Positions 10,128 to 26,784 of a stretch of 64,000 nt of DNA are shown here, piece after piece. The notes under the pieces are model-generated. The model ran no database searches. It was not told where the DNA came from and saw only the letters and a list, made by a program, of their open reading frames with translations. Numbering within the stretch: the stretch's first letter is position 1; each line of letters begins with the position of its first letter. This DNA is from Cyclobacterium plantarum (GTDB lineage Bacteria > Bacteroidota > Bacteroidia > Cytophagales > Cyclobacteriaceae), in assembly GCF_011290685.1 (NCBI RefSeq), contig NZ_JAANYN010000008.1, forward strand, positions 236,107 to 300,106, given 5' to 3'. The translations under genes and the position numbers were made by a program.

Positions 10128-11593
10128 TTTGTAGGAATTGTGTTTTCATTCATGGTAAATTCTCCACCGGTTTCATTGGGTGTTGGAAAGCCACCGGCCA
10201 GGGCGCGGTACAAAGACACCCTAAACAACAGCTGATCCAATTTGGCATTTACTAAATCTCGTTTCAATTGCTGCATCTGGTCCAGCGTAACCAGGACATC
10301 CAGGTAAGCGATGGAGCCGTTCAGGTATTCCACACGCAGTTGCTGAAAGGCCCTTTCCGCAAGGTTAAGCTGATTCTCAAGGTAACCGATACGCTCCTTT
10401 TGTAGGTTTTCCCGGTTCAGGGCATCTTCCACTTCCTGCAATGCTAGCAAAACTGTTTGCCCATAAGCTTGTATTTGTTGCTCCCGGAAAGCCTCGGCTT
10501 GTCTTTTTTCAGCCTTTAATCTTCCTCCATAAAAAAGAGGCATCAGCAAACTACTGGTCAAAGAGGCTGCCTGGGATTCTACCAGATTGGTAAGGGTATT
10601 GGATCGGAGTGCACCGGTGAAGTTAAAAGTCAGCCTGGGGTAAGTATTGCTAATGGCGACTGCCACCTCCCTGTCTGCTGCCTCCATTTGATGAAAACTA
10701 CTTTGAATATCAGGGCGACGGTTGATCAATTCCATAGGTAGGCCGGCATCTGGCAAAGGTCCCAATTCAGGCAATTGACTTTCCGAAGGAAGGGAAAGAT
10801 TTCCCGGAGCTCTTCCAAGCAATACCGCCAACCTGTTTTGTAGGGTTTTTACTTCAATTTGTATGGCCATGGACTGCTCCCGGGTATTTTGAATCAGCTG
10901 TTCCTGACGGAGAATATCCACTCCCCTCACCTGTCCGCTGGCAAATCTCGCCCGGATCAATGCCAAAACCTGTTCGTTGTATTCGGTTTGTTGGCGAATA
11001 AGTTCGAGTTGCTCCATAAAAGCCTGCAAGGAAAACCAGGTGAGCGCCACCTCTCCAGCAATACTTATGGCCAGCGTTTGGTAGTCCAGGTAACTCGCCT
11101 TCAGCCTGCTTTCCGCAGCCAACTTACTTTGCTTTACCCTTCCCCAAAGATCCACTTCATAGCTGCTGCGGAGAGACAACTGAGTATTCTCTCCTCCAAC
11201 AAAATCAGGAACAGGACGACTTGCTCCACCCTGAAGTTCCAAAAAAACCTGAGGAACCCTTTCTGACGCGATTATGGCAACGTTACTGGCTTCCTGTGCT
11301 ACCTGATACCAGGAACCTTTTAATTCCAGGTTATGAAAAAGGGCACTATCAACCATTCCATTAAGTTCGGGATCCCCGAAAGCTTTCCACCAGTCAGCCT
11401 CCAGCTCATAAGAGCCGGTGGGAAGGGAAAAAGCATCAGGAGTGGTTATCGGTACATCTCTTGTAGTAACCTTATTCCCACATCCTGCCGAAATCCCTAC
11501 AAGAAAAAGAAAAAAAATAAAATTAAAACTGCCTTGTAATCTATACAGGGAAATTGGAAAACGGTTATTTCTAAATTGTTGGGTATCAGGCAA
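10124..11593 (-). CDS. Efflux outer membrane factor (TolC/NodT type lipoprotein)
   Basis: A 489-residue outer membrane efflux protein with two OEP repeats. The N-terminus carries a signal peptide with a lipobox (VGISAGC), so the mature protein is probably lipidated. The typical NodT blocks are present: ELEADWWKAFGDPELN, SLRSSYEVDLWGRVKQSKLAAES and INRRPDIQSSFHQMEAADREV, and a second-half coiled coil near residues 370-450. It is the first gene of the operon outer membrane factor - adaptor - permease - DsrE. The 178 bp upstream are A/T-rich without a clear promoter match. Confidence 0.95.
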   Translation of the reverse strand: MPDTQQFRNNRFPISLYRLQGSFNFIFFLFLVGISAGCGNKVTTRDVPITTPDAFSLPTGSYELEADWWKAFGDPELNGMVDSALFHNLELKGSWYQVAQEASNVAIIASERVPQVFLELQGGASRPVPDFVGGENTQLSLRSSYEVDLWGRVKQSKLAAESRLKASYLDYQTLAISIAGEVALTWFSLQAFMEQLELIRQQTEYNEQVLALIRARFASGQVRGVDILRQEQLIQNTREQSMAIQIEVKTLQNRLAVLLGRAPGNLSLPSESQLPELGPLPDAGLPMELINRRPDIQSSFHQMEAADREVAVAISNTYPRLTFNFTGALRSNTLTNLVESQAASLTSSLLMPLFYGGRLKAEKRQAEAFREQQIQAYGQTVLLALQEVEDALNRENLQKERIGYLENQLNLAERAFQQLRVEYLNGSIAYLDVLVTLDQMQQLKRDLVNAKLDQLLFRVSLYRALAGGFPTPNETGGEFTMNENTIPTK

Positions 11594-11772
11594 AAGAACT
11601 ATTTTTTTAAGTTTAGATATAAATAAAGGTTTACTTCCATGATAGGATATATTTTGTTACGCTACAGTTGACCAACAATGCTACTGCTGATAATCTCCTA
11701 AAATTACAAATTATGGTTCAACATAAAAGGATAGCTTGCAAAGTAAGGCAATAATCTGAAGAAAATCTGAAT

Positions 11773-12258
11773 CTATTGATAAGGCTTTTTAAGGGTTTCC
11801 AGGAGTTTCTGGTAATCGTACTGTAGGTCTTCATGCAACTTTTCTATCAATTTCTCCACTTTACCTACTTGTAATGCATATAAATTTTCTATAACCGGGT
11901 GCCGGTACTCCAGGTAGCCAAATTCCTGTAGTTTTTTGCAAAAAAAGGCAATGATTTCAATCCTTGCAGTAGGATCCTTTGTAAGTTTCAGGTTTTTATT
12001 CAGGATTTTACGAATACTTTGTGCTGATTTTTTTGCCAGGTAATAATTGTTCTTGTTGGCCTTAAAAAATGCAATTTCCAGTTCTTCCTTCAAAGTATCG
12101 ATAAAAAGTGTGGATGTTTCGGTATCGAATAATTTAAAATAAAGGAAAGCTTTGTTATCCCGGCTGAGTTTACTCAGGTGTAGTATCAACTCAATCAATT
12201 CTTTTGGCTCTTTGTGCTGTAGTTCTTTTCTTATTGTGCTTAAACTGGGGATTTGCAT
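11773..12258 (-). CDS. Hypothetical helical protein (161 aa)
   Basis: A 161-residue, mostly helical, lysine- and leucine-rich protein without signal peptide or membrane segment. Readable blocks include EPKELIELILHLSKLSRDNKAF and LAKKSAQSIRKILNKNLKLT. I do not recognise the family; HEAT/ARM-like helical hairpins are possible from the pattern. A longer start exists at 12339, but the added residues are poorly protein-like, so the ATG at 12258 is preferred. It is on the same strand as the efflux operon but 179 bp away, with no evidence of a functional link. Confidence 0.65.
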   Translation of the reverse strand: MQIPSLSTIRKELQHKEPKELIELILHLSKLSRDNKAFLYFKLFDTETSTLFIDTLKEELEIAFFKANKNNYYLAKKSAQSIRKILNKNLKLTKDPTARIEIIAFFCKKLQEFGYLEYRHPVIENLYALQVGKVEKLIEKLHEDLQYDYQKLLETLKKPYQ

Positions 12259-12589
12259 GGTGTTTTTTATCTGAAACGTTCGAATTGCCCTATCGGGTAG
12301 AAAAGTTTTAAATATACCCATTTTCGAAAAAAAGAACATGTGATAAACGAATTAACCGGAAAGGAAAGACTCCAATCTGAAAAATACCTAAAAAAAAATC
12401 CTTAATCAGTCTCTTGCAAGGCTCCCTATCTCAAACAATTAAACGGGATCCTCTATGAATCGATGCCCGATACATTTGCCAGTTTACTTCAATTAATTTA
12501 GAACATAAAAAGAGAAATATACTGAAAATCAAACATTTATATATTGATGAACTGAATTCGAATTAAGACCGTCAATAAAAGCCAATTGA

Positions 12590-12712
12590 ATCGTCACTGC
12601 GAACCCTTTGTCCTGGGTATAGGTGCTGGGAAAGGGGGTGGCAGTCTCCTTTGGCCAGTGATTCCCACGGCTTTCACCGCTCAAAACCGGCTTTAAGCCT
12701 ACCGATGACGTT
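12590..12712 (+). repeat. Interspersed repeat family A, degenerate copy 1
   Basis: This copy starts with gtcactgcga, contains gggtggcagtct and gattccca, and ends with accgatgacg. The same ordered landmarks occur at 13128-13340. It is more diverged than the other two copies. Confidence 0.5.
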
Positions 12713-13104
12713 TTTGTTAAATCACTGTAAATCAATGTATTGAAAAACAAACAATATCATCCTGATTTGTGTAATTTCTAAATGTTAAGCCTACCTGTGA
12801 AGTAATTGAATCAGTTGTTTTTATAAAGAAGAAACCCTAAAAAATCTGTTAGATAAAGAAGAGAAAAATTTTAATACGAAAAGAGCGCTGGCCCGACAAA
12901 AAACCGGGGGTGCGGCAGGTTTGTGGGGAGAAGGATTTTTTTGTTCCCGATGAAAAATCGGGACAAAAAGTACAATAGAAACAAGCTAAAATACCATAAA
13001 CAGCCTATGACTCACCATTATCCATTGAACAATGAGAATTTTATATTCCCCTATAATGCAAAAAACCTATCGTCATCCCGATTTCTGCGTTTTATAAAAT
13101 GTTA

Positions 13105-13340
13105 AGTCTACCGATGACGGGTCTTGTCGTCACTGCGAGGGCGCAGACGGGAATAAAAAGGGAATCGAAAATAGCCATGCACCCGCGGCAGTCTGAGGGG
13201 GTACGGGGACGACCTTTCGATCCTATTCCCATTTCCCGATGGATATATGCCGCCGCTCCGAAACAGATCGCTTTTAGGCTGAGCCTGCCGAAGCCCGCTT
13301 TCTGCGTTTTTTTAAAATGTTACTTCTCGGAATGACGGTT
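13105..13340 (+). repeat. Interspersed repeat family A, copy 2
   Basis: Contains gtcactgcgaggg, the block ggcagtctga, then acctttcgatcctat, gccgccgctccg, cagatcgctttt, aggctgagcctgccgaagcc and a terminal ggaatgacgg. The part from about 13181 to 13338 matches the reverse complement of 54392-54534 along its whole length. Terminal strings related to cgtcattgcgag at both ends suggest imperfect terminal inverted repeats. Confidence 0.75.
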
Positions 13341-13402
13341 TTTTAACGAAATTCAATCGAACTCAAGTTATTAGAGTGAAATTATCTGAATAAAAACCAA
13401 AA

Positions 13403-16400
13403 TCAATCACAATCGGTGCAACATATATCAGGCACCTTGGTCAGCCTGGAAGTACGCAATATACGGTGATGGCCCAACTCATTACTGACCGGACTATTTA
13501 AATTTACGGGGGCGGCTGTGCTGCCCGCTGCTGTGCCAAAACGCTGCTTGTAACTTTGATTAAAGGATTCTCGCTGACCTGAACTCATAAAATTACTGGT
13601 AGATTGAGCGACCAGCGCATCTTCAAGTCCGGATACATGGTCGAATACATTTTTAATATGCGGCAATACTTCCACCACTACCACGCTCAAAGAGGCATCA
13701 GTAGGCAATCCGTAAAGACGTAAGAATTGATTGATTTCGGTATTGCTCCATATAGTGGTTCCATATTTAGTGGCATTCTTGTTTTTGTTCGTTGCCGTTT
13801 TTAGTTTAAGGAATTTGCTTGCTGAAGAAATATCCCCCTGCCCTTTCAGGGTTTTTATGGCGATCTGATTAAGCAGTTGAAGTTCCTGCTGTGAGTAAGA
13901 CTCCTGAATGTTTTCCTGTACCGCTGCCTTTACCTGAACGCGCCAGTCAAGGGGCCGGTCATCCAGGAGGATGTTGCGGTAATCCTGGTTATCGACTCTT
14001 TTCACTTGTGCATACAGCAAGGCCCATAATCCTGTTCGGGGGGGATTTGCTGTTACATTTTTACCTTTGTGGACCGCTGAGGCATAAGGCGCGGTAACCC
14101 AAATTTTATCTTTATCCCTATTGGGCATGCAAGACAAGGCGGGTGCGGGATGTTGAATTCCCTGCATCTTTAACCTTCGGCCAAACCTACCCTGAGCAGT
14201 GGTCCACACCTTTTCTCCTTCGTCTCCCTCATTGACTGGGGGCCGCTCAAAGTGTCCTACCCGAAATTCATAGGTAAAAAAGCCAAACATTTCGTCACTG
14301 TTGGCATGTAGCCCGGGTGGCAGGGGCAGGATATAATGTACATCGCTGTCCTTGCTTTTTATCATGGCCTGCATGGCATTCAGACCGGCCAGGTCATTGG
14401 AAGAAGCAGGAGAAACGATGCGAATAAACTCAGGATCAATGGGCAAAGTTGGTTCCTCCGGCGACAAAAACAATGAAGGATGGTTATTGCTGATCAATTG
14501 GTCAGGTGCCTGGGCCAAAACCCGGGCAAAGTAGCAGTCTTGCGGATCCTTTACCGGCTGATCAAACTCAATCCAAAGATACCTTTTCCTTGATTCGCTG
14601 TTTTCGTACTTTTCATCCCGCATATAGGGGGACAAAGCATAACCAGCCGACACGATTACAGGCACCTGCGCCGGGGGACTGGTGATGGGCAGTGTCATTT
14701 CAGTTGCTTCCAGATCATCACGGCTGGCTCCATGATCGGACTTGAACCTTGCTTCCAGGCTGTAGGTTAGGTCGATGCTATCAGGAAAGCTTTCCGTATT
14801 ATCCCGTTTAGGCTCAACGGCATCAAAAAACACCAATTGAGTACTGTTTCTTTGTGGACTGTCAAGTGATTCAAATGAAGCAGTTCGGATCATTTTGATT
14901 TTGCCTACCCTTACATCCGTTTCACCGTTACCTTCAGCATCATGCGTGAATTTTTTGGATCGCCTAACCCAAAATGCTTCGGTCTGCATGGCATCCCACA
15001 TCCAGTCACGATCCAACTCATAATTCAGACAACAGATCCAGTGATGGTACAAATCACCCTTGGATGCGAAAGTTATGGAAGAGCCATCCGGTGCCAGGCT
15101 GTGCCGGATGCGACTGCTGCAACCAAAAACCACCCTTTTTCCTTTGGGAGCATACAGTGTAAGCCCATTGCTTTCCAGGTTCAATCTATCTGCAATTTGC
15201 TGAATATTACTATTTTGATTTTCCTGAGATTTTCCGAAAAGCAGGGTATTCCAGGTACCGTCAAAGACTGTTGTTGCATCAGGCCGCATGTACAAGCCCT
15301 GAAGAACAGGAATGCCAGCGGTCTGAACCAACAGCCCCGTTTCATCTTGAGAAGGTTGATAAAGCAACACGGAAAAAGAAGCGCCATAACGGACGTCCAA
15401 TTGGGGATTGGCTGCATCCACTACTCCATAATAAGCTTCTGTTTGGGAATCTGTTTCCTTATCCTCACAAACAGCCCTGATGGTAAGCCTGGCTGTTCTC
15501 CCTGTAGGTAATACCAATTCACTCAACTGGTCAATATCATCTTCCAACCCCAGGTCTTGAGCCAGATTTAAAGTTGGCCCTGTATGCAAAACCTTGTCTG
15601 TTCCCTGTATATCCCTGTAAATGATGGGGATATTCAGGTTAGCTTCATACTCGTCTTCATTATTCCCTATGGCCGGAAAGTATCTATAGGTGGTGTACAG
15701 GTGGATGTAATCGTCTTTTCCATTTAGGCTTTCCAACTTGTCCAGCTTCAATGTGGCTATTTCCACAGTGATCTGCACCCGGTCCACATCCGGGTCGGCT
15801 ATGCCCAGCCCCACCCGATGTTCCGCATCTCCTGCCTCAGGACTGAGCCCCAGATTAGACTGTTCGATTAGTCGGTCAATTGGGTTTGAATATTTACCGG
15901 TATATACCACTGCAGGATAGCCCAATTTAGGCCTGCGAATGGTCAATGCTTCCAGTTGGTTTGGTCCGTCCACGCCAGTAACAGGATGTTCATCCCCTGG
16001 CTGAGCCTCGGGATTGGCTTCAACTTCCAGAATTCGGGGCTGAATGGGAGAAATAAATCGCTTAAAACGGCAAAATCCGATATCAGAAGGGGTTTCATTG
16101 ATGGGCTGTCGCTCTATGGCCGGTACGCCACCGCTGATATCCTGCATCCGGACACGGAATTCGTAACCTTGCCCATAACGCAATACGGCATTAACAGGTC
16201 CTGCCTGATAGATTTGGTTCAGTTGATTTTGTGCTGCTCCGGAAACGCCGGTACCTGTGGTTACCGGATTTCCATCCTTGTCGGTGGCTGCCTGTCCATC
16301 AGGGTCAGCATCCAGGTTGGGATTTGTTGTCTGGTATACCGTAGCCGCATCCTCATCAGGAAGGACCATGCTGTGTCCTGTCCAGTTGGCAAAATACATG

Positions 16401-17716
16401 GGCAGCCAATAGGGTTGTCGTTCTCCGGTAACCTGTTCGGTCCCATCCAGCTGAGTGGGATATACCTGGTAAGGCAAATCACCAGAAAAATCCCCCAATA
16501 CAATGGCATCGGCTGGATTGGCCGGGTTTCGGCTCAGGCTGAAGGTATTGCGGTTGCTGACCCAATTCAAAGATTCCCATACTCCCGGTTCCTCGCCTTC
16601 CGCAGCCTGTTGCCGCACATCAATTACAAAACCATTGATACCTATAGGCGCATCCAGCCTTTTGACCGGCCCGGCTACGCTGCTATCGACTGCCAGCTGC
16701 CGCATGTACCAATTCAGTAACTGTAAATCATCCCATCCCAATTGAATACCTGAATCCGTTAAAGGATAGGATCCATCCACTTCTTCTATCAACGGATCCC
16801 GGTGGGGTGACTGGTGGCAATGAACCGTTTTTGCAAAACCATCGTCGTAAATAGCTGTTTCAATAAAAAGCTCATCATAATTCCCATCATGCACACTCAA
16901 TACCGGGTACAGCAAAGGTGCAAATACCTGTCTCGGTTCTCCGGGACGCAAGATGGGAATACGGGCTGCATAGCGTTTGATAAAGGTATCATCAGCAGCA
17001 AACTGAGGACTAAAACTACTACCATCGGCCAAATCCAGGTACAAAAATCCTCCCTCCGGAAAAGTATCCGCCGCAATGGGCAGATTAAAGGAATAAATAA
17101 ATCCGGCAGCACGTGCCAGCAAGGGGTGCCGGAGTATATGGGCAAAAACCTTTCCCCAACTGATGGAGGGGCCGGTTTGCTGAAAGCCCTGGTAAAAATT
17201 TGCTGCTTTGACGGCACAATGATAGGTATCATCCGTAAAAGCATTTTTACTTTTAATGGCTTTTAACCCAGTGGCTTTCAAGAAGGTTTTGGGCAGGTGT
17301 TTGTAGACGGATACACTGCGTGGCCTGGGAGCCTCAAATTGCCTGGATTGGGGAATATTCAGTAAACTGGCATTGCTGTTTATCATGCTCACATCCAGGA
17401 TCTGCAGGTGGTTGGCCATGGCTTCGAAAATTTCCCTGGGGTTTTGGGGAGCCTGGATGTTTACAGGGAGCGCGTTTGCCAATGGCTGTGGTTGTGGTAA
17501 AGGATTTGCGCCAAATCCCTGGACCAATTGGGCCCCAAAGGAAAAACTGGCATCAGCAAAAGCCACTGAAGCATCAGGAATTGCCGGTTCCTGTCCGGTG
17601 ATGATCGGATTTAATGGGTTATGGTCTCTTGGTAGCACCACAATATTTACCTGCAATTCGTTTCCGTCAAAATATTGCGGAAAAGTCATGATCGAAAGTC
17701 TTTGGTTGGGATTCAT
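13403..17716 (-). CDS. Giant protein of unknown function (1437 aa)
   Basis: A 1437-residue protein that I cannot place in a named family. It has no signal peptide, no lipobox and no membrane segment. It opens with a compact beta-rich block (LQVNIVVLPRDHNPLNP), followed by a Pro/Gln-rich stretch (about residues 70-90). Regions of mixed beta strands with many Asp/Asn/Pro turns make up the rest (for example FRVRMQDISGG near 545 and LWIEFDQPVKDPQDCYFARV past residue 1040). The end is HHRILRTSRLTKVPDICCTDCD-like, with a three-Cys tail (key residues CC and C in the last six). It starts 12 bp after the 1798-aa gene, so the two are probably co-translated under the upstream LuxR-type regulator. A structural, surface or large multidomain binding protein is possible; no enzyme motif is seen. 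A second start at MTFPQ (residue 10) is possible. Confidence 0.85.
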   Translation of the reverse strand: MNPNQRLSIMTFPQYFDGNELQVNIVVLPRDHNPLNPIITGQEPAIPDASVAFADASFSFGAQLVQGFGANPLPQPQPLANALPVNIQAPQNPREIFEAMANHLQILDVSMINSNASLLNIPQSRQFEAPRPRSVSVYKHLPKTFLKATGLKAIKSKNAFTDDTYHCAVKAANFYQGFQQTGPSISWGKVFAHILRHPLLARAAGFIYSFNLPIAADTFPEGGFLYLDLADGSSFSPQFAADDTFIKRYAARIPILRPGEPRQVFAPLLYPVLSVHDGNYDELFIETAIYDDGFAKTVHCHQSPHRDPLIEEVDGSYPLTDSGIQLGWDDLQLLNWYMRQLAVDSSVAGPVKRLDAPIGINGFVIDVRQQAAEGEEPGVWESLNWVSNRNTFSLSRNPANPADAIVLGDFSGDLPYQVYPTQLDGTEQVTGERQPYWLPMYFANWTGHSMVLPDEDAATVYQTTNPNLDADPDGQAATDKDGNPVTTGTGVSGAAQNQLNQIYQAGPVNAVLRYGQGYEFRVRMQDISGGVPAIERQPINETPSDIGFCRFKRFISPIQPRILEVEANPEAQPGDEHPVTGVDGPNQLEALTIRRPKLGYPAVVYTGKYSNPIDRLIEQSNLGLSPEAGDAEHRVGLGIADPDVDRVQITVEIATLKLDKLESLNGKDDYIHLYTTYRYFPAIGNNEDEYEANLNIPIIYRDIQGTDKVLHTGPTLNLAQDLGLEDDIDQLSELVLPTGRTARLTIRAVCEDKETDSQTEAYYGVVDAANPQLDVRYGASFSVLLYQPSQDETGLLVQTAGIPVLQGLYMRPDATTVFDGTWNTLLFGKSQENQNSNIQQIADRLNLESNGLTLYAPKGKRVVFGCSSRIRHSLAPDGSSITFASKGDLYHHWICCLNYELDRDWMWDAMQTEAFWVRRSKKFTHDAEGNGETDVRVGKIKMIRTASFESLDSPQRNSTQLVFFDAVEPKRDNTESFPDSIDLTYSLEARFKSDHGASRDDLEATEMTLPITSPPAQVPVIVSAGYALSPYMRDEKYENSESRKRYLWIEFDQPVKDPQDCYFARVLAQAPDQLISNNHPSLFLSPEEPTLPIDPEFIRIVSPASSNDLAGLNAMQAMIKSKDSDVHYILPLPPGLHANSDEMFGFFTYEFRVGHFERPPVNEGDEGEKVWTTAQGRFGRRLKMQGIQHPAPALSCMPNRDKDKIWVTAPYASAVHKGKNVTANPPRTGLWALLYAQVKRVDNQDYRNILLDDRPLDWRVQVKAAVQENIQESYSQQELQLLNQIAIKTLKGQGDISSASKFLKLKTATNKNKNATKYGTTIWSNTEINQFLRLYGLPTDASLSVVVVEVLPHIKNVFDHVSGLEDALVAQSTSNFMSSGQRESFNQSYKQRFGTAAGSTAAPVNLNSPVSNELGHHRILRTSRLTKVPDICCTDCD

Positions 17717-17728
17717 GGCAAAAATGTA

Positions 17729-20700
17729 TTATGCAATCCGGCGTTGTTCCTGCCAGGATTCGGTGAAACTGATATTGATGATAAAGGCAATGCTAATGTC
17801 CAGTCCAAAAGTCACCTGGCATTGCAGATCTGTACGGGTGTCTCCCCCACCCAGTTCTTTTCTGGCATAGGTCCCTTTAGCTTCTATACGGATGGTGATG
17901 GAAACGATCCCTCCCAGAATTTCGGCATGCCCTTCAAAAAGCAGAAATGCAGAAACTTTCACGATGCCTTCCGCAATAAATATTTCTGCACCCACGACGA
18001 ACAATACACTCACATTGCCCGCTACAGGAAGCCCTACAACGATTTGAGCGCCAAAACCAAATTTCATCCGTAAAGAAGGCCCCAATTTCGTGTCTGCCGC
18101 AATGTCCACATCTGCCTGGCCAATGGCGTAAATGGTGGCTGCCGAAATGGATACACACATTACCGATAGCCGGCCATAAAAACCTAGGACTCCACCAGCA
18201 GAAGGCAACAGTTCGTTGGCATCTGTAGTTACTTTAAGGGCCGCATTGAAGTAGGCGCCGATTTTCAGGCCGGCTTCCAGCTTGAAAGGTGTGTTGGGAT
18301 CGTTGTAAACCGCATCAGGAATGGGAAAGCGGATCACAGGTATTTCCTTGGAAGCTTCAAACTTGTATTCCCAGCTACCCGCCTTATTGCTCATGGCCAA
18401 TTGCAGGCCATTTTGAACGGCAGCCCCGTAATCACCTTCCTGCAAACTTTGAAGTATTTCCAGTAAATCAACCAAAGGATCCAATGCAGGCGCAAATTCC
18501 AGATCGGGTTTGGGATAGGTAGCTTCCTTCCCATTTTCGGAATCCCAATTGCCCCTAATGGTCATCAGCCGCTTTATTCCCGCCAGATCAATGACCAGGC
18601 CGATATTGTTCATTTTGCTTTTCCAGCTCTCCGTCACCGAGTTGATGTCAAAATCCAGGGATCCGGGCTCTTCCACATTCCCGTTTTTGTCCTTTTTGTC
18701 ATATTCTATGTATATCCTGAAATTGCCCTCCCCCACATCAATCAATTCAAATTCAGTGGGCAGGTCAAACATTTCCTCAGGATTGTGCAGGAGTTGTAAG
18801 CCTTGTTCCTTGATGCCATCAAGGGTATCCTGTACATCCATCAATTCAAATACATCCTGGCCCAGATCTTTCAGCGCATTCAGGTCGAAGGGAAAGGAAC
18901 CGTTTTTCTTCATCAGTATCGCTTCGCCAAGGGTCTGTGCAGAAAAATTATCCCCGGCACCTATATTGGGGAAAATCCCTTTGGTATTGACTATTCGAAA
19001 AGCATCTACAAACAAAGGAGGCGTTTTGCTGAGCAGTTTTTTTACGCCATTTTGAAAAGAAGGGGTGAGTAACAAAGCCTTTTGTGTATCGGTACTTTGC
19101 AAAAACCCGTAATTGACGGTACCATTTACCGGTTGACGAAACAATTCCAGCGGTTCGGCAATTCGGGTCAGTACAGTGCCAACAGGAAGGTCTATTTTTG
19201 TACCCTCCCCATCTTTGATCACTTTGCCCGGGCGAATTACCGGAATACCAAAATTGGGAGGGACAGGGCTAACTTCTCCGTTGGCCCGTTCATGCTTGAC
19301 CATAGACCAGCTGCCGTCTTTAGGCAATAAAACATTGCCTCTGCCTGCCAGGCAAAAGACCGGATCCGATCCATTTTCACCGAAAGAATTGTTAAAGTCA
19401 AAATGACTGAACCGCATTTTCTGGCTACTTCCTACCACCTCTACTTCACAGTCAATGCTTCCTCCTATGGTACCCTGCCGCTGTACCAGCAATTTCAAAG
19501 CTGTATTATTTAATGGAAAGCCTTTGGGGCCAAGCTGTACGAATCCCAGAATCCTGCTGGAAGGTACCACTGCCTTTTCCCCTTCAGCGGTGGGTTTGGT
19601 TTCCATTCCTGCGGTCACTCCCTCAATTTCTACATCTGCATCAAAATAAACCGGCTGGAGACTGATGTCAAAATTTTGAGGAATATTCACTTCCTTGCCT
19701 TCTTGGTCTACCGATTCTTCAAATAGCACATTTTCATTAAAGGGCGCCACTTCATTGGTTTCGATGATATTGGATACATTGAACAATCCTTTGATCAATC
19801 CGGGATGAATTGGGAATTCGGCCGATTTTTCCACTCCAATCAACTGTGGTTCGGGGTTTTCCGGAGGTCCACCAGGAAAGGCTGGATTGTCTTCATAGAC
19901 ATAATACCTGAAATCAAATTTACCGTCACTTTCTGCCCGCCATCCACTATCAAAGCGGTAAACGTATCCCGAACTTACCCGAAAAAGGGTAATGGTCCGT
20001 ACCACTTTTATAGCCCAGGGATATAGGATACTTTTGACCTGGATGATCTCGTGGGAACATCTTCCCATCATGACATCAAATTTTGCCTGGCTGGTTTCTG
20101 CCACAGCAGCTTTGGTATTCAGCCAATTGCTATACATATTGGCACCATAACCGCTCAGGTCCATTCGGGTTACGGGTACGCCCCGCTGTTTGTACAATTC
20201 AAAGGGGTAATTGCTATCATAAAAAAATTCCCGGTTGAAAATTTCCGTAACACTACCACCCAGGGTGCTTTTTCCCGTTTCATTACCCAAAAAATCGAGG
20301 ATATTGTTGACTTGAACCGTGGTTCCCATAAACATTTGGCTGTCTCCTTCTCTCAGTGGGGTACCTGCATCCATGCGCAGTTGAAGCCCGGATTGAAGCT
20401 GATCCTGAAAGTTAAATTTTGGTCCACTCAGGTTACCCCCCTCCCGGTTCACATTGTTATACCGATAGTTCTCCGTTAACAGTGCTGCTGCCTTCATTCC
20501 AAAGGGCAGGGTAAAAAACGAGAAAGCTTTGAAATTTTCCTCATTTTTCCGTTTTTCCAATAAAAAATCAGTGAGAGGCAATGGGGCCAGCACTACTTTG
20601 TCCTCGCTGTTATTGGCTATTCGGGTAGGACCTCCATCATTGGGGTAGTAGTTAAATCCTGCGGCAGGATCGCCTGAAATTGGATCATCGGGTGGTGGTA

Positions 20701-23125
20701 CAGGTGGGGTAAGGTTAATGACCGGCTCCCAGGAAATTTGGGGTACGGTAAAAGCACGCACATTTTCACCTGCACTGACCACATCAAGACCTTGCACCTG
20801 TAGGGAGAAAAAACTGTAAAAAATTTCACCGGTAGCAGGATCCCTTTCGGTATCCACCTGAAATTCCCGGCGGTTTAGCAAGTCAAAGCTAATGCCGAAA
20901 AGGTCTGCATTGGTACTAACATCCAATAGGGCAAATACATCCCTCCTATACCTGCTGGATTCTTTATCCCATTGACTGCCGTAATCCGGAATTCGAATGG
21001 GTGCAGCACTGCTTGTGCTGCTGGCCAACCTTGTATTGTCATTAGATCCAATTACATTGGATTGTTCCAGGTTGCCGGAAAAACGCATGGCGGAAAGCCT
21101 GCCTCCCGGATTTTCAAGATCCGAAAAGTTTGACCCTACAAAAGCTGACTCTCCGGGAATCGATGAAAAATTGCCAGGTCCTGGTGTTGCGGGATTGGTC
21201 CCGGGTTCTTCTTCTGGCTGATCCAGAGATATCCCACCAAAAAGCTGCTCAAGAGGCGAAAAATGGAACGACACTGTAACCTGATCCCCGGCATCCCCGG
21301 CAGACAAGGCCGTTCTTCCAATCAGCCAGCCTTGTAAGGTAGCTCCTGCCCCACCGGGTTGATTTTCACCTTCCCTGAACTGCCTCCTGACCAAACCCAG
21401 ATTGGCGGCATAGGGATCCGGTAGCGTAGGAATATAGGCCAAAAGTCCAAAAGACAAGAACAAAAACCCTTCGCTGACCTTGGAAAAATTTTCATCCAGC
21501 TCCCCAAAGAGCAAGCAGCCATTTGGTTGGGTGACTTTAAATAAAGCATTGCTCATCGCCAGAGCCATCTGCTCCGGTATATAGGGATCCTGATTTTCAA
21601 TTTCGGCAGTATCCGCAATCAAGTTGTCGTCAAAAAGATACACCAAACGGTTTTCAGGGGTAGCAGATAGTATGAGCAGGGAATGCCTGGATTGTAGCAA
21701 TGGTGAGGTACCATCCACTTTGACCGGACGGTCCACCTGAAAATCCGTATTACAAAATCGTATCAATAGCTCATTTCCATTGGCATGACTGAGGTAAATC
21801 AAAGGACCGGATTGTGGAAACGTAAGCTGAACTTTTGAAGGCACCAACTGGTCTTCCGTTTTCCATAATTCCAGTTCCTGGCTCGCATGCGCATTAGAAA
21901 CGCTAAAATCCACCAAAAGCAATTGTCCCGGACCCGCCAACAGGTGGGTCTGCGAAAGATTAAAACCACTACCCTGCAGGCCTGCCCAGGAATTGACCAG
22001 GCCTGGTCCGGTACGAACATAAAGTTGGCCGGTTCCTTCGGGAAAAGTTGGTTGCAACAAGTCCAGTTGGGTAATAGGAAGGAGCCAGCCAGTATTTTCT
22101 ATAAGGGCTTTGTTACTTAAAAAATTAAAATCTGACTCATTTTGCTGCAAATTCAATGCTTTGGCTGATCCTTGAAAGGGTATCAGTATCCGCTTCAACA
22201 GGGGATGATAGCTCAGCGATTGATTTTTCTGCCAGCTAAAACCAATTTTTTGTCCCATCAGGTCCCAACTTGCTCTTCCTATTGCAGAAATGGACGCCGT
22301 ATTCCCTGAAATATTGAAATCCAGGGTAGCTGGAAGGTTGAGCACCATAGAGGCAGCGGCCTTGCTATAGGGACTTTTTTTGTTAATATCCTTGACTTCC
22401 TGTTGTTCAAGTTTTAGCTCCACCTCGATTTTGGCATTTGCCGGAAGCGTTATCTTCTTATTGACCGTTTTGGTCGGATGGCTCATTTTTATCAGTCCCG
22501 ATTTGATACTCAGTCCAGTAAAAGCTCCTTCTGGCGCATTCGGTGAAAATAGACGGGCATTGATCCAGACGCCTCCTTGTCCCAGATTGTATTGGTGGAG
22601 TTTTCGTGTAGCTTCCCTTGCTTTAATGGGGGCTTTTCCACTGGATTTTCTTTCCTGGAAAAGCAATACCGGTGAAGTAATCCCTTGTTTGTATAAGGCG
22701 GTAAATGCACCAATGGGCAAAAAATCAAACCAAAATTGCCTGCCATCTTTGTTTTTAAAAGGGCCTACAGTCTCATCAACCTTTGATCCTGCAGACCAGT
22801 CAGATACAGATTGGGAAATCAGTGGATCCCTAAGGGCTACTTCTCTTCGGAAAACCTTAAATTGGGTGTCTGGATTTTTCTTTTTTCTGGCTTCTTCAAT
22901 TTTCTGAATGGCTTTCTTTTGAGAATCGCTGATGGTATCGGACTGGAATAAATCAGATTTCTCGAATGAGAATGGATTGGGGCGGTTCGGTTCAGTCCCG
23001 GATTCCAAATTTGTCCTTGTCAAAAGTGATGTTAGCTCTAAGGATGCTTTTTTCTCTACCGAAGTTTTTAGGCTTAGATGACCTATGAGTCCGGTTATTG
23101 CGGATTTTGGATTTCGTTTTTTCAT
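17729..23125 (-). CDS. Giant protein of unknown function (1798 aa), Gly/beta-rich C-terminus
   Basis: A 1798-residue protein, unrecognised. The N-terminal 120 residues are charged and helical (KKAIQKIEEARKKKNPD). The middle is beta-rich with acidic linkers and a Pro/Gly linker (EEEPGTNPATPGPG). The last 200 residues are regular short strands rich in Gly, Ala, Val and Ile (KIGAYFNAALKVTT, KFGFGAQIVVGLPVAG, SAFLLFEGHAEILGG, VSITIRIEAKGTY), ending FTESWQEQRRIA, a pattern like an amphipathic beta sheet or barrel. No signal peptide is seen. An ATG at 23227 would add 34 residues without protein-like character, so the start at MKKRNPKS (23125) is chosen. It lies 121 bp after the LuxR-type gene and 12 bp before the 1437-aa gene, all on the minus strand. 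Confidence 0.85.
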   Translation of the reverse strand: MKKRNPKSAITGLIGHLSLKTSVEKKASLELTSLLTRTNLESGTEPNRPNPFSFEKSDLFQSDTISDSQKKAIQKIEEARKKKNPDTQFKVFRREVALRDPLISQSVSDWSAGSKVDETVGPFKNKDGRQFWFDFLPIGAFTALYKQGITSPVLLFQERKSSGKAPIKAREATRKLHQYNLGQGGVWINARLFSPNAPEGAFTGLSIKSGLIKMSHPTKTVNKKITLPANAKIEVELKLEQQEVKDINKKSPYSKAAASMVLNLPATLDFNISGNTASISAIGRASWDLMGQKIGFSWQKNQSLSYHPLLKRILIPFQGSAKALNLQQNESDFNFLSNKALIENTGWLLPITQLDLLQPTFPEGTGQLYVRTGPGLVNSWAGLQGSGFNLSQTHLLAGPGQLLLVDFSVSNAHASQELELWKTEDQLVPSKVQLTFPQSGPLIYLSHANGNELLIRFCNTDFQVDRPVKVDGTSPLLQSRHSLLILSATPENRLVYLFDDNLIADTAEIENQDPYIPEQMALAMSNALFKVTQPNGCLLFGELDENFSKVSEGFLFLSFGLLAYIPTLPDPYAANLGLVRRQFREGENQPGGAGATLQGWLIGRTALSAGDAGDQVTVSFHFSPLEQLFGGISLDQPEEEPGTNPATPGPGNFSSIPGESAFVGSNFSDLENPGGRLSAMRFSGNLEQSNVIGSNDNTRLASSTSSAAPIRIPDYGSQWDKESSRYRRDVFALLDVSTNADLFGISFDLLNRREFQVDTERDPATGEIFYSFFSLQVQGLDVVSAGENVRAFTVPQISWEPVINLTPPVPPPDDPISGDPAAGFNYYPNDGGPTRIANNSEDKVVLAPLPLTDFLLEKRKNEENFKAFSFFTLPFGMKAAALLTENYRYNNVNREGGNLSGPKFNFQDQLQSGLQLRMDAGTPLREGDSQMFMGTTVQVNNILDFLGNETGKSTLGGSVTEIFNREFFYDSNYPFELYKQRGVPVTRMDLSGYGANMYSNWLNTKAAVAETSQAKFDVMMGRCSHEIIQVKSILYPWAIKVVRTITLFRVSSGYVYRFDSGWRAESDGKFDFRYYVYEDNPAFPGGPPENPEPQLIGVEKSAEFPIHPGLIKGLFNVSNIIETNEVAPFNENVLFEESVDQEGKEVNIPQNFDISLQPVYFDADVEIEGVTAGMETKPTAEGEKAVVPSSRILGFVQLGPKGFPLNNTALKLLVQRQGTIGGSIDCEVEVVGSSQKMRFSHFDFNNSFGENGSDPVFCLAGRGNVLLPKDGSWSMVKHERANGEVSPVPPNFGIPVIRPGKVIKDGEGTKIDLPVGTVLTRIAEPLELFRQPVNGTVNYGFLQSTDTQKALLLTPSFQNGVKKLLSKTPPLFVDAFRIVNTKGIFPNIGAGDNFSAQTLGEAILMKKNGSFPFDLNALKDLGQDVFELMDVQDTLDGIKEQGLQLLHNPEEMFDLPTEFELIDVGEGNFRIYIEYDKKDKNGNVEEPGSLDFDINSVTESWKSKMNNIGLVIDLAGIKRLMTIRGNWDSENGKEATYPKPDLEFAPALDPLVDLLEILQSLQEGDYGAAVQNGLQLAMSNKAGSWEYKFEASKEIPVIRFPIPDAVYNDPNTPFKLEAGLKIGAYFNAALKVTTDANELLPSAGGVLGFYGRLSVMCVSISAATIYAIGQADVDIAADTKLGPSLRMKFGFGAQIVVGLPVAGNVSVLFVVGAEIFIAEGIVKVSAFLLFEGHAEILGGIVSITIRIEAKGTYARKELGGGDTRTDLQCQVTFGLDISIAFIINISFTESWQEQRRIA

Positions 23126-23246
23126 GTAGATGGTTTGCTGGCTTGAAAAATTGTATCCAGTAACCACCTGAAAACAAAACAGTTGATTACTAAATATAAA
23201 TTTATATAAATCTGAAAAAAGGCACAATCCCCATTTATGGGGATAT

Positions 23247-23927
23247 TTATATCATATCGGATTTGGAGGCCTCTTTGATCAACTGGGCTGTATTCTTGAC
23301 AGCAAACTTTTCAATCAGGTGTTTGCGGTGAGAAATGGCCGTATGGATACTGATATAAAGTTTGTCGGCAATTTGTTTTGATGAAAAACCTTCCCCAATC
23401 AAATGAAGCACCTCCCTTTCCCTATTGGAAATTTCGATGTTTCTATTCTGACTCCAGAGCTGAAACCCTGAAAAAACCTTTTCAATACGTTCTTTATGAG
23501 TGATATTATATAAATAACTGATTATCAAATCATTATTTGATTTAATCAGAAGTGAAACCTGATGTTGAATCAGGTACCATTTTTGAAAAATATCCTGAAT
23601 ATGATAGGTGTAAGAATTTCTTGGCGGGATATGATTCAAGCAGTCAGGATTGGAAATCAGCGATTCAATTAGCTGACGGATACCTGACAATTCCATAGGT
23701 TTTATTTTCTGGAACCAAAACTCCCAGCCCCCCTTTTCCATTACCTCGGAACTGTAGCCCAGGATATTTTTGAATGAATCATTGTGGAATAAAAATTTCT
23801 TTTTCCCTAAATCAAAAACGCTTACCATCAGGTATTTTCCTTCCGAAGAGCAGTCGGTCAAGGCATGAATTTCTTCATTGGACAAAATCCCCGAAAAAGA
23901 TGGTATGATTCCATTTTTTGATGACAT
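23247..23927 (-). CDS. PAS-like domain LuxR-type transcriptional regulator
   Basis: A 226-residue regulator. Residues about 30-140 look like a PAS-type sensor (VSVFDLGKKKFLFHNDSFKNILGYS, then a five-stranded pattern). Residues about 160-222 form a LuxR/GerE helix-turn-helix with the conserved REREVLHLIGEGFSSKQIADKL and SIHTAISHRKHLIEKF blocks. No receiver domain is present, so it is not a classical response regulator. This architecture is common in Bacteroidota. It is the first gene of the block with the two giant genes, and an inverted repeat (AGCTATA / TATAGCT) sits 17 bp upstream. Control of the downstream genes is inferred from position. Confidence 0.88.
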   Translation of the reverse strand: MSSKNGIIPSFSGILSNEEIHALTDCSSEGKYLMVSVFDLGKKKFLFHNDSFKNILGYSSEVMEKGGWEFWFQKIKPMELSGIRQLIESLISNPDCLNHIPPRNSYTYHIQDIFQKWYLIQHQVSLLIKSNNDLIISYLYNITHKERIEKVFSGFQLWSQNRNIEISNREREVLHLIGEGFSSKQIADKLYISIHTAISHRKHLIEKFAVKNTAQLIKEASKSDMI

Positions 23928-23943
23928 CCTTGAAAAATTAAAA

Positions 23944-23978
23944 AGCTATAAACCAAATACTTACTTTGAAATATAGCT
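23944..23978. promoter_or_regulatory. Inverted repeat upstream of the LuxR-type gene
   Basis: AGCTATA at 23944-23950 and TATAGCT at 23972-23978, a perfect 7-bp inverted repeat with a 21-bp spacer. It ends 17 bp before the regulator's ATG. It could be an operator for autoregulation or a chance A/T-rich match. The rest of 23928-24265 shows no gene; the region is very A/T-rich and separates divergent transcription units. Confidence 0.3.
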
Positions 23979-24265
23979 ATAAATATTGAAATTAAGCTAA
24001 TCTATATCCTATTTTCTTGTAATTTTTCCTGGGGACCTTTCTTTACCCGTCATAATCTCCTATTTGTTGAACTAAACAAAATTAAGTCTTGTACATTTTG
24101 GAATAATCCGTACATTTAATATAAACAAGTATATCAAAACCTTTCATGTATTAAAATTATCCATTTGGATTAAAAACAAAGGTATTTCTATTCACCATAT
24201 GATTAGATCATCATATATAGGAATATCCTGCGCATTTTAGAAAATAACTTAAAACAATTTATTTG

Positions 24266-24493
24266 ATGTGGGACGATGAAAATAAAGAATTCCAGGTAGT
24301 GGTAAACCATGAAGAACAATACAGCATCTGGCCCTCGGACAGGGAATTGCCTCTGGGCTGGAATGCGGTTGGGAAAAAAGGAAACAAACAGGAATGTCTG
24401 GATTATATCGAGGAAGTCTGGACCGATATGCGGCCCCTTTCATTGAGGAAAAAAATGGAAGAAAAGGAAAAAAAGCAGCAAGAGGGAGATTAA
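24266..24493 (+). CDS. MbtH-like protein, orphan
   Basis: A 75-residue protein of the MbtH family, which normally binds and activates adenylation domains of nonribosomal peptide synthetases. The family hallmarks are present in order: [20 protein letters not shown], and [17 protein letters not shown] with the conserved Trp residues and the DxRP motif. A Lys/Glu-rich tail (about residues 58-75) is longer than usual. No NRPS gene lies in the window, so its partner must be elsewhere or it has another role. The ATG at 24266 is chosen; an in-frame TTG directly precedes it. The PL8-like lyase starts 63 bp downstream. Confidence 0.85.
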
Positions 24494-24556
24494 GGAGGTA
24501 TGTTGGTCCTTTATTCTTAATCCATATTTAACCAAATTACCCAAAATAATTACACT

Positions 24557-26734
24557 ATGCAAGGGACAGGCTCCAGGAGGTTATGGTTGCCGATAATGAT
24601 TTTATTTTTTCTGCAATCATTCAACTGCCTTTCCAATGAATTGGATACCATCCGTAAAAGGGTGGTGGCTGTATTATTACAAACCGAGATCAATAAGGCT
24701 GAGGTAAACGGAATACTCAATCAGATGGATTCGAAAGGCGCTTTTACTCCTATCAATTATGAGGATTTAAGCAGAACAGCAGGATTCCCACACAGGCGAC
24801 ATACTTCAAATCTGGTGTACCTGGCAACAGCCTTTACAAAAAAAACTTCCCCTTATTATCATGATCCGGCCTTAAAAGAAAAGATCAATTTATCCTTGAA
24901 ATATTGGGTAGACCACGATTTTGTAGGTGATAACTGGCACAACAACCAAATCACAACCCCCACAAACCTGGTGAATCTTATGCTTCTTATGGGAGAAGAA
25001 TTACCGGATGATTTGGTAGAAAAAGCACAGCCCATCATTGGCAGGGCCCACATGGAAGCGTCTGGAGCAAGACCCAGTGGAGACCGGATAGTTATAGCAG
25101 GCATATTGGCAAAAAACATGTTATTCATGGAAAACAAAGAGGCTTTTGACGATGTCATTGCCATCATTGCCAATGAGATAAAATTCAGCACCGGAGAAAG
25201 GGGCATTCAACACGATTACAGCTTCCACCACCGGGTAGACCGGGTAAACAACACCACTTCCTACGGATATGGGAAATATGCCAATGCTTTCGGTGAATGG
25301 GCAGATTATGTAGCAGGAACCTCATATGCTTTCGATAAGGACAGGATCAACCAGCTGGTAGATTACTATCTTGATGGGGTGTACAAACAGCTAGTATATG
25401 GTATCTATGAGGATATCAGTGTAAAAAACAGGTCCATTTCCAACAAATCTGAATTTCAGCCCAGGGGAACCTTGGAAATTGAACGCCTGTTACGTAGTAC
25501 TGATTACAGGCAAGAAGAGCTGGAAAAGGTACTTAGCTTGCGCAAGGGAGAAAGCTCCCCTTCCCTGTCATTTGCCAAATTTTTCTGGCAAACGGAGCAT
25601 TTTGTACTGCAAAGACCGGATTTTTATACCACTGTGCGCATGTTTTCTACCCGAAACCGCAATATGGAAAAACCTTATAATGGTCCGGGAAAAACCACTC
25701 ACCACCGGGCTGATGGCACCAATTACCTGCTACTGAAAGGCAATGAATATCAGGATATCTGGCCGGTATACGACTGGCAAAAAATTTCTGGTACCACCAT
25801 CCTGCAAAAACCTGAGTTACATGGACCCGAGGATATCCAAATGGATGGTTTAACCGACTTTGTAGGTGCAGCCGAAGACGGTTATTTTGGAGCCGTTGGT
25901 TTTGATTTTATCAGTCCTCACGACAGTACAATGGCGAAAAAGGCTTGGTTTTTTTTCGACAGGATGTACGTTTGCCTGGGAGCAGGAATTACTTCAGAAA
26001 AACCATATCCCGTGGCCAGCACCATAGATCAGGTATTGCTCCGGGCTCCTATCCGTGTAAAGGAACAGGGAACAACGGAGCGACAACTTCCGGAAGGTGA
26101 GCACCTTCTGGAAGGTCTCGAATGGTTGTATCACGATGGTGTAGGATATTGGTTTCCCCAGGATGCAGCCCTGACTGTCAGGAACCAGGTAGAAAGTGGT
26201 GCCTGGGCGGATATTACAGATCAAAAAAATGTTTCCACCAAAATAATCAGGAAAAAAGTCCTGACCGCTTATTTTAATCACGGCATTCGACCTCAGAAAG
26301 GAACTTATGCCTATGCCGTTCTTCCAGGGACAACTACCGATGAACTGGCTTCCATGGCTCAATCTGGCCTTCGCGTTTTATCCAATGACATGCGGATACA
26401 GGCGGTTCATCACCCCGGCCTGGAACAAACCCAGGCTGTATTTTACCAGAAAGGTACGCTGTCCTTGGCTGATGGCAGTTCGGTTGTGGTAGATCATCCT
26501 GGAATTGTCCTGATCAAAAAGAACCAGGAATCCATTCAATCCCTGACAGTTGCCGACCCGACCCGGAGAAGGGAGCAGTTCTTGATAAACCTTCCTGGAA
26601 GGTACAAAAATACCACCGGAGAATTCAGTACAAAATATAACAGAAGTGCCAATACCACTCAAATCTTGATCGACTTGCCCCAGGGCGTGTATGCGGGCAA
26701 GTCCGTTTCCCTGGATTTGTGGCAACGCAAATGA
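24557..26734 (+). CDS. Secreted polysaccharide lyase, family 8-like
   Basis: A 725-residue protein with a signal peptide (hydrophobic about residues 9-24). An alpha/alpha toroid half (about 30-350) is followed by a beta-sandwich half. It resembles PL8 lyases (chondroitin AC, hyaluronate, xanthan lyases). NWHNNQITTP (residues about 126-135) carries the candidate substrate-neutralising Asn, and the HDYSFHHR...TTSYGYGKYA segment (about 219-242) carries the candidate catalytic His and Tyr. PL8 enzymes cut uronate-containing glycans by beta-elimination, leaving unsaturated uronates. The sulfatase 50 bp downstream suggests a sulfated substrate, and the KDG/KDPG genes at 44-46 kb could take up the product. 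Substrate is not determined. Confidence 0.82.
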   Translation: MQGTGSRRLWLPIMILFFLQSFNCLSNELDTIRKRVVAVLLQTEINKAEVNGILNQMDSKGAFTPINYEDLSRTAGFPHRRHTSNLVYLATAFTKKTSPYYHDPALKEKINLSLKYWVDHDFVGDNWHNNQITTPTNLVNLMLLMGEELPDDLVEKAQPIIGRAHMEASGARPSGDRIVIAGILAKNMLFMENKEAFDDVIAIIANEIKFSTGERGIQHDYSFHHRVDRVNNTTSYGYGKYANAFGEWADYVAGTSYAFDKDRINQLVDYYLDGVYKQLVYGIYEDISVKNRSISNKSEFQPRGTLEIERLLRSTDYRQEELEKVLSLRKGESSPSLSFAKFFWQTEHFVLQRPDFYTTVRMFSTRNRNMEKPYNGPGKTTHHRADGTNYLLLKGNEYQDIWPVYDWQKISGTTILQKPELHGPEDIQMDGLTDFVGAAEDGYFGAVGFDFISPHDSTMAKKAWFFFDRMYVCLGAGITSEKPYPVASTIDQVLLRAPIRVKEQGTTERQLPEGEHLLEGLEWLYHDGVGYWFPQDAALTVRNQVESGAWADITDQKNVSTKIIRKKVLTAYFNHGIRPQKGTYAYAVLPGTTTDELASMAQSGLRVLSNDMRIQAVHHPGLEQTQAVFYQKGTLSLADGSSVVVDHPGIVLIKKNQESIQSLTVADPTRRREQFLINLPGRYKNTTGEFSTKYNRSANTTQILIDLPQGVYAGKSVSLDLWQRK

Positions 26735-26784
26735 CTACATATTGAAAATACAAAGGCCTTAAGTTAATACTACATCAATCAAAT

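What the first reader, a model, noticed from the sequence alone, without database searches (positions are those of the whole stretch)
13403..23927. A regulator plus two giant unrecognised proteins in one apparent operon
A PAS-LuxR regulator is followed on the same strand by 1798-aa and 1437-aa proteins only 12 bp apart. Neither giant has a signal peptide, membrane segment or enzyme motif I can name. Together with the regulator they take 10.5 kb with no other gene, suggesting a co-expressed system or a very large structural complex.
Basis: partly seen in the sequence, partly recalled or inferred. Interest (0 to 1): 0.75.

Follow-up and report, generated by a model that had tools for sequence, protein, structure and literature searches.

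The report
Switchable pair of unclassified giant proteins
A marine bacterium carries two very large neighbouring proteins that match no family we could search, nearly always occur together in distant bacteria, and sit behind their own gene switch, so they probably act as one machine whose job is still unknown.

Summary
In a Cyclobacterium genome a PAS-LuxR regulator (23247-23927) is followed by giants A (17729-23125, 1798 aa) and B (13403-17716, 1437 aa), 12 bp apart. Neither matches Pfam, NCBIfam, PHROGs, PADLOC or solved structures convincingly. The pair is widespread: A-then-B neighbours occur in other Bacteroidota (including probable green sulfur bacteria and an Ignavibacteriae MAG) and on plasmids of Chloroflexota and Alphaproteobacteria. 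In a 395-genome phylum sample, all 10 genomes with B have A beside it; one more has only a broken A fragment. The B tree implies horizontal transfer; the A tree is consistent.

"One operon" needs correcting. The 121-bp regulator-A gap holds a dyad, ATCCCC-N6-GGGGATTGnG, overlapping a predicted promoter (TTG-N20-TAnnTTTA) in 8 of 8 Cyclobacterium. The closest regulator relative found, in a genome related only at phylum level, has the dyad behind it too, but precedes an operon without detectable likeness (subtilase plus DUF6603). Regulator and dyad look like a portable switch. No full-length relative of the regulator was found at the non-Cyclobacterium A/B loci, several of which lack upstream DNA.

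Best reading: a switchable, mobile, two-subunit giant assembly, probably structural. AlphaFold failed (pLDDT 37, 31); function is open.

The parts
23247..23927 (-). PAS-LuxR (GerE) transcriptional regulator, 226 aa
   Evidence: GerE 51.7 bits, PAS_3 22 bits (below its cut-off). Full-length orthologue in exactly the 8 of 12 Cyclobacterium genomes that hold the pair or its remnant
23223..23244 (-). Conserved dyad ATCCCC-N6-GGGGAT (23227-23244) with right extension TGTG, two bases after the regulator stop codon; proposed operator
   Evidence: 8 of 8 Cyclobacterium regulator loci, plus G266 and G218
23197..23227 (-). Predicted promoter: TTG (23225-23227, in the right arm of the dyad), 20-nt spacer, TAAATTTA (23197-23204)
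   Evidence: TAnnTTTA at exactly 20 nt in 8 of 8 Cyclobacterium and in G218; absent in G266
17729..23125 (-). Giant A, 1798 aa, no known family; the C-terminal about 180 residues look like a beta meander
   Evidence: secondary structure only from a low-confidence model
13403..17716 (-). Giant B, 1437 aa, no known family; conserved C-terminal motif LG..RI.R.S.L..V...C

Best explanation
This is a mobile cassette made of a portable transcriptional switch and an obligate pair of giant proteins. SHOWN from sequence: A and B are a conserved, co-inherited, same-order gene pair; in Cyclobacterium the pair sits behind a PAS-LuxR regulator, with a conserved predicted promoter overlapping a dyad. INFERRED: the PAS domain senses an unknown cytoplasmic signal; the LuxR domain binds the dyad, centred roughly 44 nt upstream of the expected start, like a class II activator site, and turns on a two-gene A-B transcript; A and B then assemble into one large, beta-rich, mostly non-enzymatic complex. 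Made without a recognised export signal, the complex most likely acts as an inducible structural or scaffold assembly rather than as an enzyme. The dyad and a homologous regulator also precede a giant-protein operon with no detectable likeness to A-B (DUF6603 plus subtilase), so the switch may serve a class of large-protein operons.
For: Pairing: 10 of 10 B-bearing genomes of 395 have adjacent A. A is present in 9 of 9 loci found with B in genome contigs and in 3 of 4 plasmid records. Gap -1 to 51 nt in 14 of 15 loci measured, 764 in the Ignavibacteriae MAG. A and B trees broadly agree. Switch: regulator in the same 8 of 12 Cyclobacterium genomes as the pair or remnant; dyad and TTG-N20-TAnnTTTA in 8 of 8. 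Of the 5 other genomes that passed the regulator search (its profile contained the G266 row), 2 (G266, G218) have the dyad, 0 of 2000 shuffles scoring as high in each. The G266 regulator is 36% identical over 211 aa and scores 152 bits with a profile that excludes it. Portability: hhalign finds no likeness of A or B to DUF6603 (probability at most 2.4%). Structural: invariant columns are enriched in W (4.1-4.8x), G and P and poor in K, S, T, N; no signal-like N-terminus.
Against: No binding, transcript or complex was measured. Dyad: a consensus scan with up to 2 mismatches found none in 20 non-Cyclobacterium A/B stretches, and a matrix found none upstream of A in the three tested (Lewinella, Ignavibacteriae, G284); no full-length regulator there either. 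The G266 gap lacks a TAnnTTT at the right spacing. Three of the five other regulator genomes (G069 and G074 of one genus, and G165) show no giant operon in the ORF lists and a palindrome with another core. Only 1 of 14 DUF6603 loci has the regulator. AlphaFold models are unusable (mean pLDDT 37 and 31), so neither fold nor non-enzymatic nature is established. Invariant D, R, H and C residues exist and could be catalytic.
Confidence: 0.5

Rival explanations
1. Conflict or defence module: the pair is an anti-phage or anti-competitor system carried by mobile elements, switched on by the regulator.
For: Patchy distribution (10 of 395), a tree implying transfer, variable slot between conserved genes, plasmid homologues near TA genes (Tistrella), ParB and, about 10 kb away, type I-D CRISPR (Chlorohelix), decayed copies.
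Against: No PADLOC match for A and B of window and Microvirga; no nuclease, NTPase or toxin family; no phage record and no viral-contig relative of B (A was not searched there). Recurrent defence neighbours were not seen in the ORF lists, but neighbours were not scanned against PADLOC.
Confidence: 0.2
2. Export pair: A and B are delivered outside by a route without a signal peptide and act as adhesin, effector or toxin.
For: Giant size, Trp-rich, beta-rich look; weak hits of A to a pilin backbone (E 0.038) and of B to an FN3 design (E 2.2); in G218 the dyad lies upstream of a T9SS-type cargo gene.
Against: No signal-like N-terminus by hydropathy, no T9SS sorting domain in A or B; no constant secretion genes recognised by eye in the ORF lists.
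Confidence: 0.17
3. Novel enzyme pair: A and B are subunits of an unrecognised enzyme.
For: 149 invariant gap-free columns in 16 B sequences and 124 in 14 A sequences, including D, R, H, C; R is 2.0x enriched in B.
Against: No family hit in four libraries; invariants dominated by W, G, P, more typical of structure.
Confidence: 0.13
4. The regulator is a bystander: A and B are linked to it only by gene order, and the dyad is an RNA hairpin or unrelated element.
For: No full-length regulator found at non-Cyclobacterium A/B loci; the dyad starts at the regulator stop codon, a place where terminators lie.
Against: Exact 8 of 12 co-occurrence with the pair or remnant; dyad follows the regulator into a genome related only at phylum level; arm mismatches in G008 and G266 weaken an RNA stem but leave a DNA dyad; the dyad overlaps a conserved -33/-7 promoter.
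Confidence: 0.12

Closest known systems
DUF6603 (PF20248) giant-protein gene clusters
   Same: Neighbouring large ORFs, mostly without Pfam family where tested, patchy in Bacteroidota (11 of 296 over cut-off); in G266 behind a homologous PAS-LuxR regulator and the same dyad. 4 of the 5 genera with A/B in the sample also have a DUF6603 species.
   Different: No sequence homology to A or B found; different partner genes, including a subtilase in G266.
LuxR/NarL-type activators with a lux-box-like site overlapping the -35 region (recalled)
   Same: GerE HTH; dyad overlapping the upstream promoter element.
   Different: PAS instead of an autoinducer or receiver domain; Bacteroidota-type promoter; binding not tested.
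Bacteroidota sigma-ABfr promoter (TTTG near -33, TAnnTTTG at -7; one passage seen in PMC7366714; -7 box in one passage of PMC5682007)
   Same: TAnnTTT at exactly 20 nt from a TTG in 8 of 8 Cyclobacterium.
   Different: Eighth base of the -7 box is A, and -33 reads ATTG. The same passage of PMC7366714 says the -33 motif was not identified in Flavobacterium johnsoniae.

Membership tests
PAS-LuxR regulator | C-terminal GerE/LuxR HTH | tested here: met
   51.7 bits against cut-off 23.5
PAS-LuxR regulator | N-terminal PAS domain | tested here: inconclusive
   PAS_3 22 bits, cut-off 25.6; the G266 homologue scores 38.5
DUF6603 proteins | PF20248 match or profile-profile likeness | tested here: not met
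   No PF20248 match in 14 A and 16 B members; hhalign probability 2.4% or less
Known anti-phage defence system | Match to a PADLOC model | tested here: not met
   0 families for A and B of window and Microvirga
Phage or tail-like structural protein | PHROG match or phage homologue | tested here: not met
   PHROGs: A and B of window and Microvirga, 0 families; phage records and viral contigs: B only, no relative
T9SS cargo | Signal peptide and C-terminal sorting domain | tested here: not met
   No Por_Secre_tail in A or B; N-termini not signal-like by hydropathy only
Two-subunit complex | Physical A-B interaction | not testable with these tools
   Only co-inheritance shown
FN3/Ig-repeat protein | Confident fold match | tested here: inconclusive
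   FN3con E 2.2 over 28 profile positions; AF2 pLDDT 37

The most novel reading that the evidence does not exclude
A and B found a new class of inducible giant heteromeric machine, spread in part by plasmids through at least three phyla; and one PAS-LuxR switch with its dyad has been captured by at least two unrelated giant-protein operons (A-B and DUF6603), which may be interchangeable solutions to the same task.
Probability: 0.3. Interest if true: 0.85.

Novelty: categorically new. Interest (0 to 1): 0.62.

Why it matters
About 9.7 kb of coding DNA, conserved across three phyla and found on plasmids, has no annotation in the libraries searched. If A and B form one machine, it is a large piece of bacterial cell biology that family libraries miss. 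The dyad and regulator give a direct handle: the switch can be tested by binding and transcript assays, and it points to DUF6603 clusters as possible functional analogues. 'Categorically new' refers to the protein pair and rests on failed searches; no confident structure was obtained, so a known fold may still emerge.

Tried and rejected
AlphaFold of B 1-1200 and A 600-1798, each with the window plus nine search for related loci sequences, failed (mean pLDDT 37.1 and 31.0), so no fold search was run. Profile searches of solved structures gave no convincing match: A best E 0.097 and 0.038 (pilin backbone), B none and E 2.2. Homology of A or B to DUF6603 was suspected from the look of the A C-terminus and not supported by hhalign (A C-terminus 1.5% over 185 columns, best single comparison 2.4%). 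A and B are not detectably homologous to each other (in one search only the deliberately overlapping segment ends of B matched). No Rfam family in 11500-24700. Viral contigs: 29 pattern hits, none a relative of B. A 1432-1434-aa membrane protein between B and the 188-aa gene in G001 and G006 was considered a third component and set aside because the other 5 of 7 intact Cyclobacterium loci have no room or no ORF for it. Genus overlap of A/B with DUF6603 (hypergeometric 6.6e-5; 0.003 after dropping g103 and g108) is biased by uneven species sampling and is a hint only. The G266 neighbourhood was noticed by eye while reading DUF6603 loci, then checked with a profile that excludes it: 1 of 14 DUF6603 loci has the regulator. 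Literature: no paper held DUF6603, none held any of five homologue accessions or PF20248, and none held five of six descriptive terms; some searches returned listings, none opened. One search listed promoter papers; passages of two were seen.

Full report
1. What is there. The window lies in genome G000, contig C36. On the minus strand a PAS-LuxR regulator (23247-23927) is followed, after 121 bp, by giant A (17729-23125, 1798 aa, 197 kDa, pI 5.1) and, after 12 bp, by giant B (13403-17716, 1437 aa, 160 kDa, pI 5.1). The ATG at 23125 is the conserved start of A. I take the antisense ORFs in this stretch to be mechanical.

2. The giants are unclassified. No Pfam, NCBIfam, PHROGs or PADLOC family (NCBIfam was run on the window pair and Microvirga A, PHROGs and PADLOC on the window and Microvirga pairs). 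Scanning 14 A and 16 B members singly in Pfam gives only isolated hits, best E 0.032. Solved structures: best E 0.038 for A, 2.2 for B. A and B are not detectably related to each other.

3. They are a pair. Genus: B in 8 of 12 Cyclobacterium genomes, A in 7 of 12; the odd one (G003) has a 619-aa ORF joining about the first 43 residues of A to B from about residue 857, an internal deletion or an assembly error. Wider relatives, 59 genomes: B in 9, A in 8, the addition being G032 of the same family. Phylum sample of 395: B in 10, A in 11; all 10 B genomes carry A next to it on the same strand (in G082 and G362 on broken contigs), and the eleventh, G268, has an A fragment with a stop. Genome contigs, a search that reaches close relatives only: 9 loci with B, all with A: six Cyclobacterium, one Lewinella MAG, one Ignavibacteriae MAG, one Chitinophagaceae MAG. 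Plasmids: 4 of 72,556 records have B (Microvirga terrae, Candidatus Chlorohelix allophototropha, Tistrella mobilis, and a fragment in Microvirga sp. VF16); 3 of 4 have A, apparently interrupted in Tistrella. Phages: 0 of 50,697 records match B. All 5 genomes of family f36 that were tested carry the bacteriochlorophyll A protein family and the 4 others tested do not, so f36 is probably green sulfur bacteria (inference). A-B gaps are -1 to 51 nt in 14 of 15 loci, 764 nt in the Ignavibacteriae MAG.

4. They move. In the B tree Cyclobacterium groups with the Lewinella and Ignavibacteriae MAGs (100/99), while two members of its own family, G032 and G133, fall in another group (98/98). In the A tree the same seven rows group (95/94); G032 is outside but its place is open, and G133 was not included. 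The tool warns of long branches in both trees. In three of the four pair-less Cyclobacterium genomes (G002, G009, G010) the slot between the polysaccharide lyase 8 gene and the 188-aa gene holds an ORF like an AI-2E transporter (family tested for G010 only); G007 was not examined there. GC3 of A (0.451) and B (0.471) lies in the range of nearby genes (0.39-0.50), which gives no sign of recent arrival. Low dN/dS, though with saturated dS, suggests the pair is kept.

5. The switch. A full-length orthologue of the regulator is in exactly the 8 genomes with the pair or remnant; the other 4 give only partial HTH-type matches. Right after the regulator stop codon lies ATCCCC-N6-GGGGATTGnG in 8 of 8, one mismatch in G008. 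Its TTG is followed after exactly 20 nt by TAnnTTTA in 8 of 8, 78-84 nt before the A start codon; a TAnnTTT anywhere at 17-23 nt arises in 5% of shuffled gaps. The eight sites are related by descent, so they are not eight independent trials. This fits a Bacteroidota promoter (passages in PMC7366714 and PMC5682007) with a dyad overlapping the -33 element. A and B therefore probably have their own transcript; whether the regulator transcript also runs into A is open.

6. The switch is portable. Reading 14 DUF6603 loci (all over the curated cut-off) showed, in G266, which is related only at phylum level, a PAS-LuxR regulator 36% identical over 211 aa, directly upstream of a subtilase, DUF6603 and two further giant ORFs. 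A profile of six Cyclobacterium regulators gives it 152 bits; it is the only full-length match in 14 DUF6603 and 20 non-Cyclobacterium A/B stretches; one partial match (48 bits) lies in L098 of G195. The gap behind the G266 regulator carries the dyad: 0 of 2000 shuffles score as high; the -7 box is not found there. The regulator search of 395 genomes at E 1e-22 listed five genomes besides the own one; G266 was in the profile and so hits by construction. Of the five, G218, a two-component LuxR with a similar HTH (82.8 bits), has the dyad and TTG-N20-TACCTTTA in a divergent gap (0 of 2000), upstream of a T9SS-cargo gene. G069 and G074 (one genus) and G165 instead have a palindrome with similar flanks and another core (AATACTG...CAG.ATTG; 13-22 of 2000 shuffles), behind the regulator in the first two and before it in G165, and no giant operon in the ORF lists. 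The pair itself, outside Cyclobacterium, showed neither full-length regulator nor dyad, with upstream DNA missing at some loci. Other signalling genes occur there: response regulator plus PAS histidine kinase before A in G284 and G264, PAS/GAF protein upstream in Microvirga.

7. Mechanism. Inferred chain: signal to PAS, LuxR dimer on the dyad, A-B transcript, both proteins made together, one large complex. Shown: pairing, promoter-dyad conservation, regulator-dyad co-conservation. Not shown: binding, transcription, interaction, location, function. The structural reading rests on size, the W/G/P-rich invariant set and absence of enzyme families; the low-confidence models cannot be used for fold.

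8. Relation to known systems. DUF6603 clusters resemble it in kind (several large ORFs side by side, the same switch in 1 of 14 loci, the same genera for 4 of 5) but fail the membership test by sequence. No paper on DUF6603 or on the homologue accessions was found in the open-licence library searched.

Noticed in passing
L050:9372-11231 (G003): 619-aa ORF fusing the first about 43 residues of A to B from about residue 857, with regulator, dyad and predicted promoter still in front: internal deletion or assembly error.
   Followed up: partly
L053:949-5253 and L054:964-5262: A 1432-1434-aa predicted membrane protein without Pfam family sits between B and the 188-aa gene in G001 and G006 only.
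   Followed up: partly
L153:1-15108 (G266): PAS-LuxR regulator upstream of subtilase, DUF6603 and two further giant ORFs, with the same dyad as in the window.
   Followed up: yes
L162:12446-12628 (G218): Two dyad-like sites and a TTG-N20-TAnnTTTA promoter between a HK-RR(LuxR) pair and a T9SS-cargo gene.
   Followed up: partly
L098:1984-2688 (G195): 234-aa ORF with a partial, HTH-centred match (48 bits) to the Cyclobacterium regulator profile, roughly 5 kb beyond B.
   Followed up: no
window 12340-13402: About 1 kb without a large ORF downstream of B, with three diverged copies of a 24-36 nt repeat (TTAAGYCTACCGATGACG-like).
   Followed up: no
L100:1501-1518 (G000 C34:111165): Second genomic copy of ATCCCC-N6-GGGGAT, inside a helicase-like ORF (by eye); probably chance.
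   Followed up: partly
window 38146-40032: 628-aa protein with transthyretin-like (TTR-52) and weak bMG3 matches.
   Followed up: no
window 24557-28128: Polysaccharide lyase 8 and sulfatase genes beside the cassette, present also in three pair-less genomes.
   Followed up: no
L026:14482-15816: Ignavibacteriae MAG: ORF with a caspase/CHAT-like look (recalled; no Pfam hit) on the opposite strand beside B.
   Followed up: no
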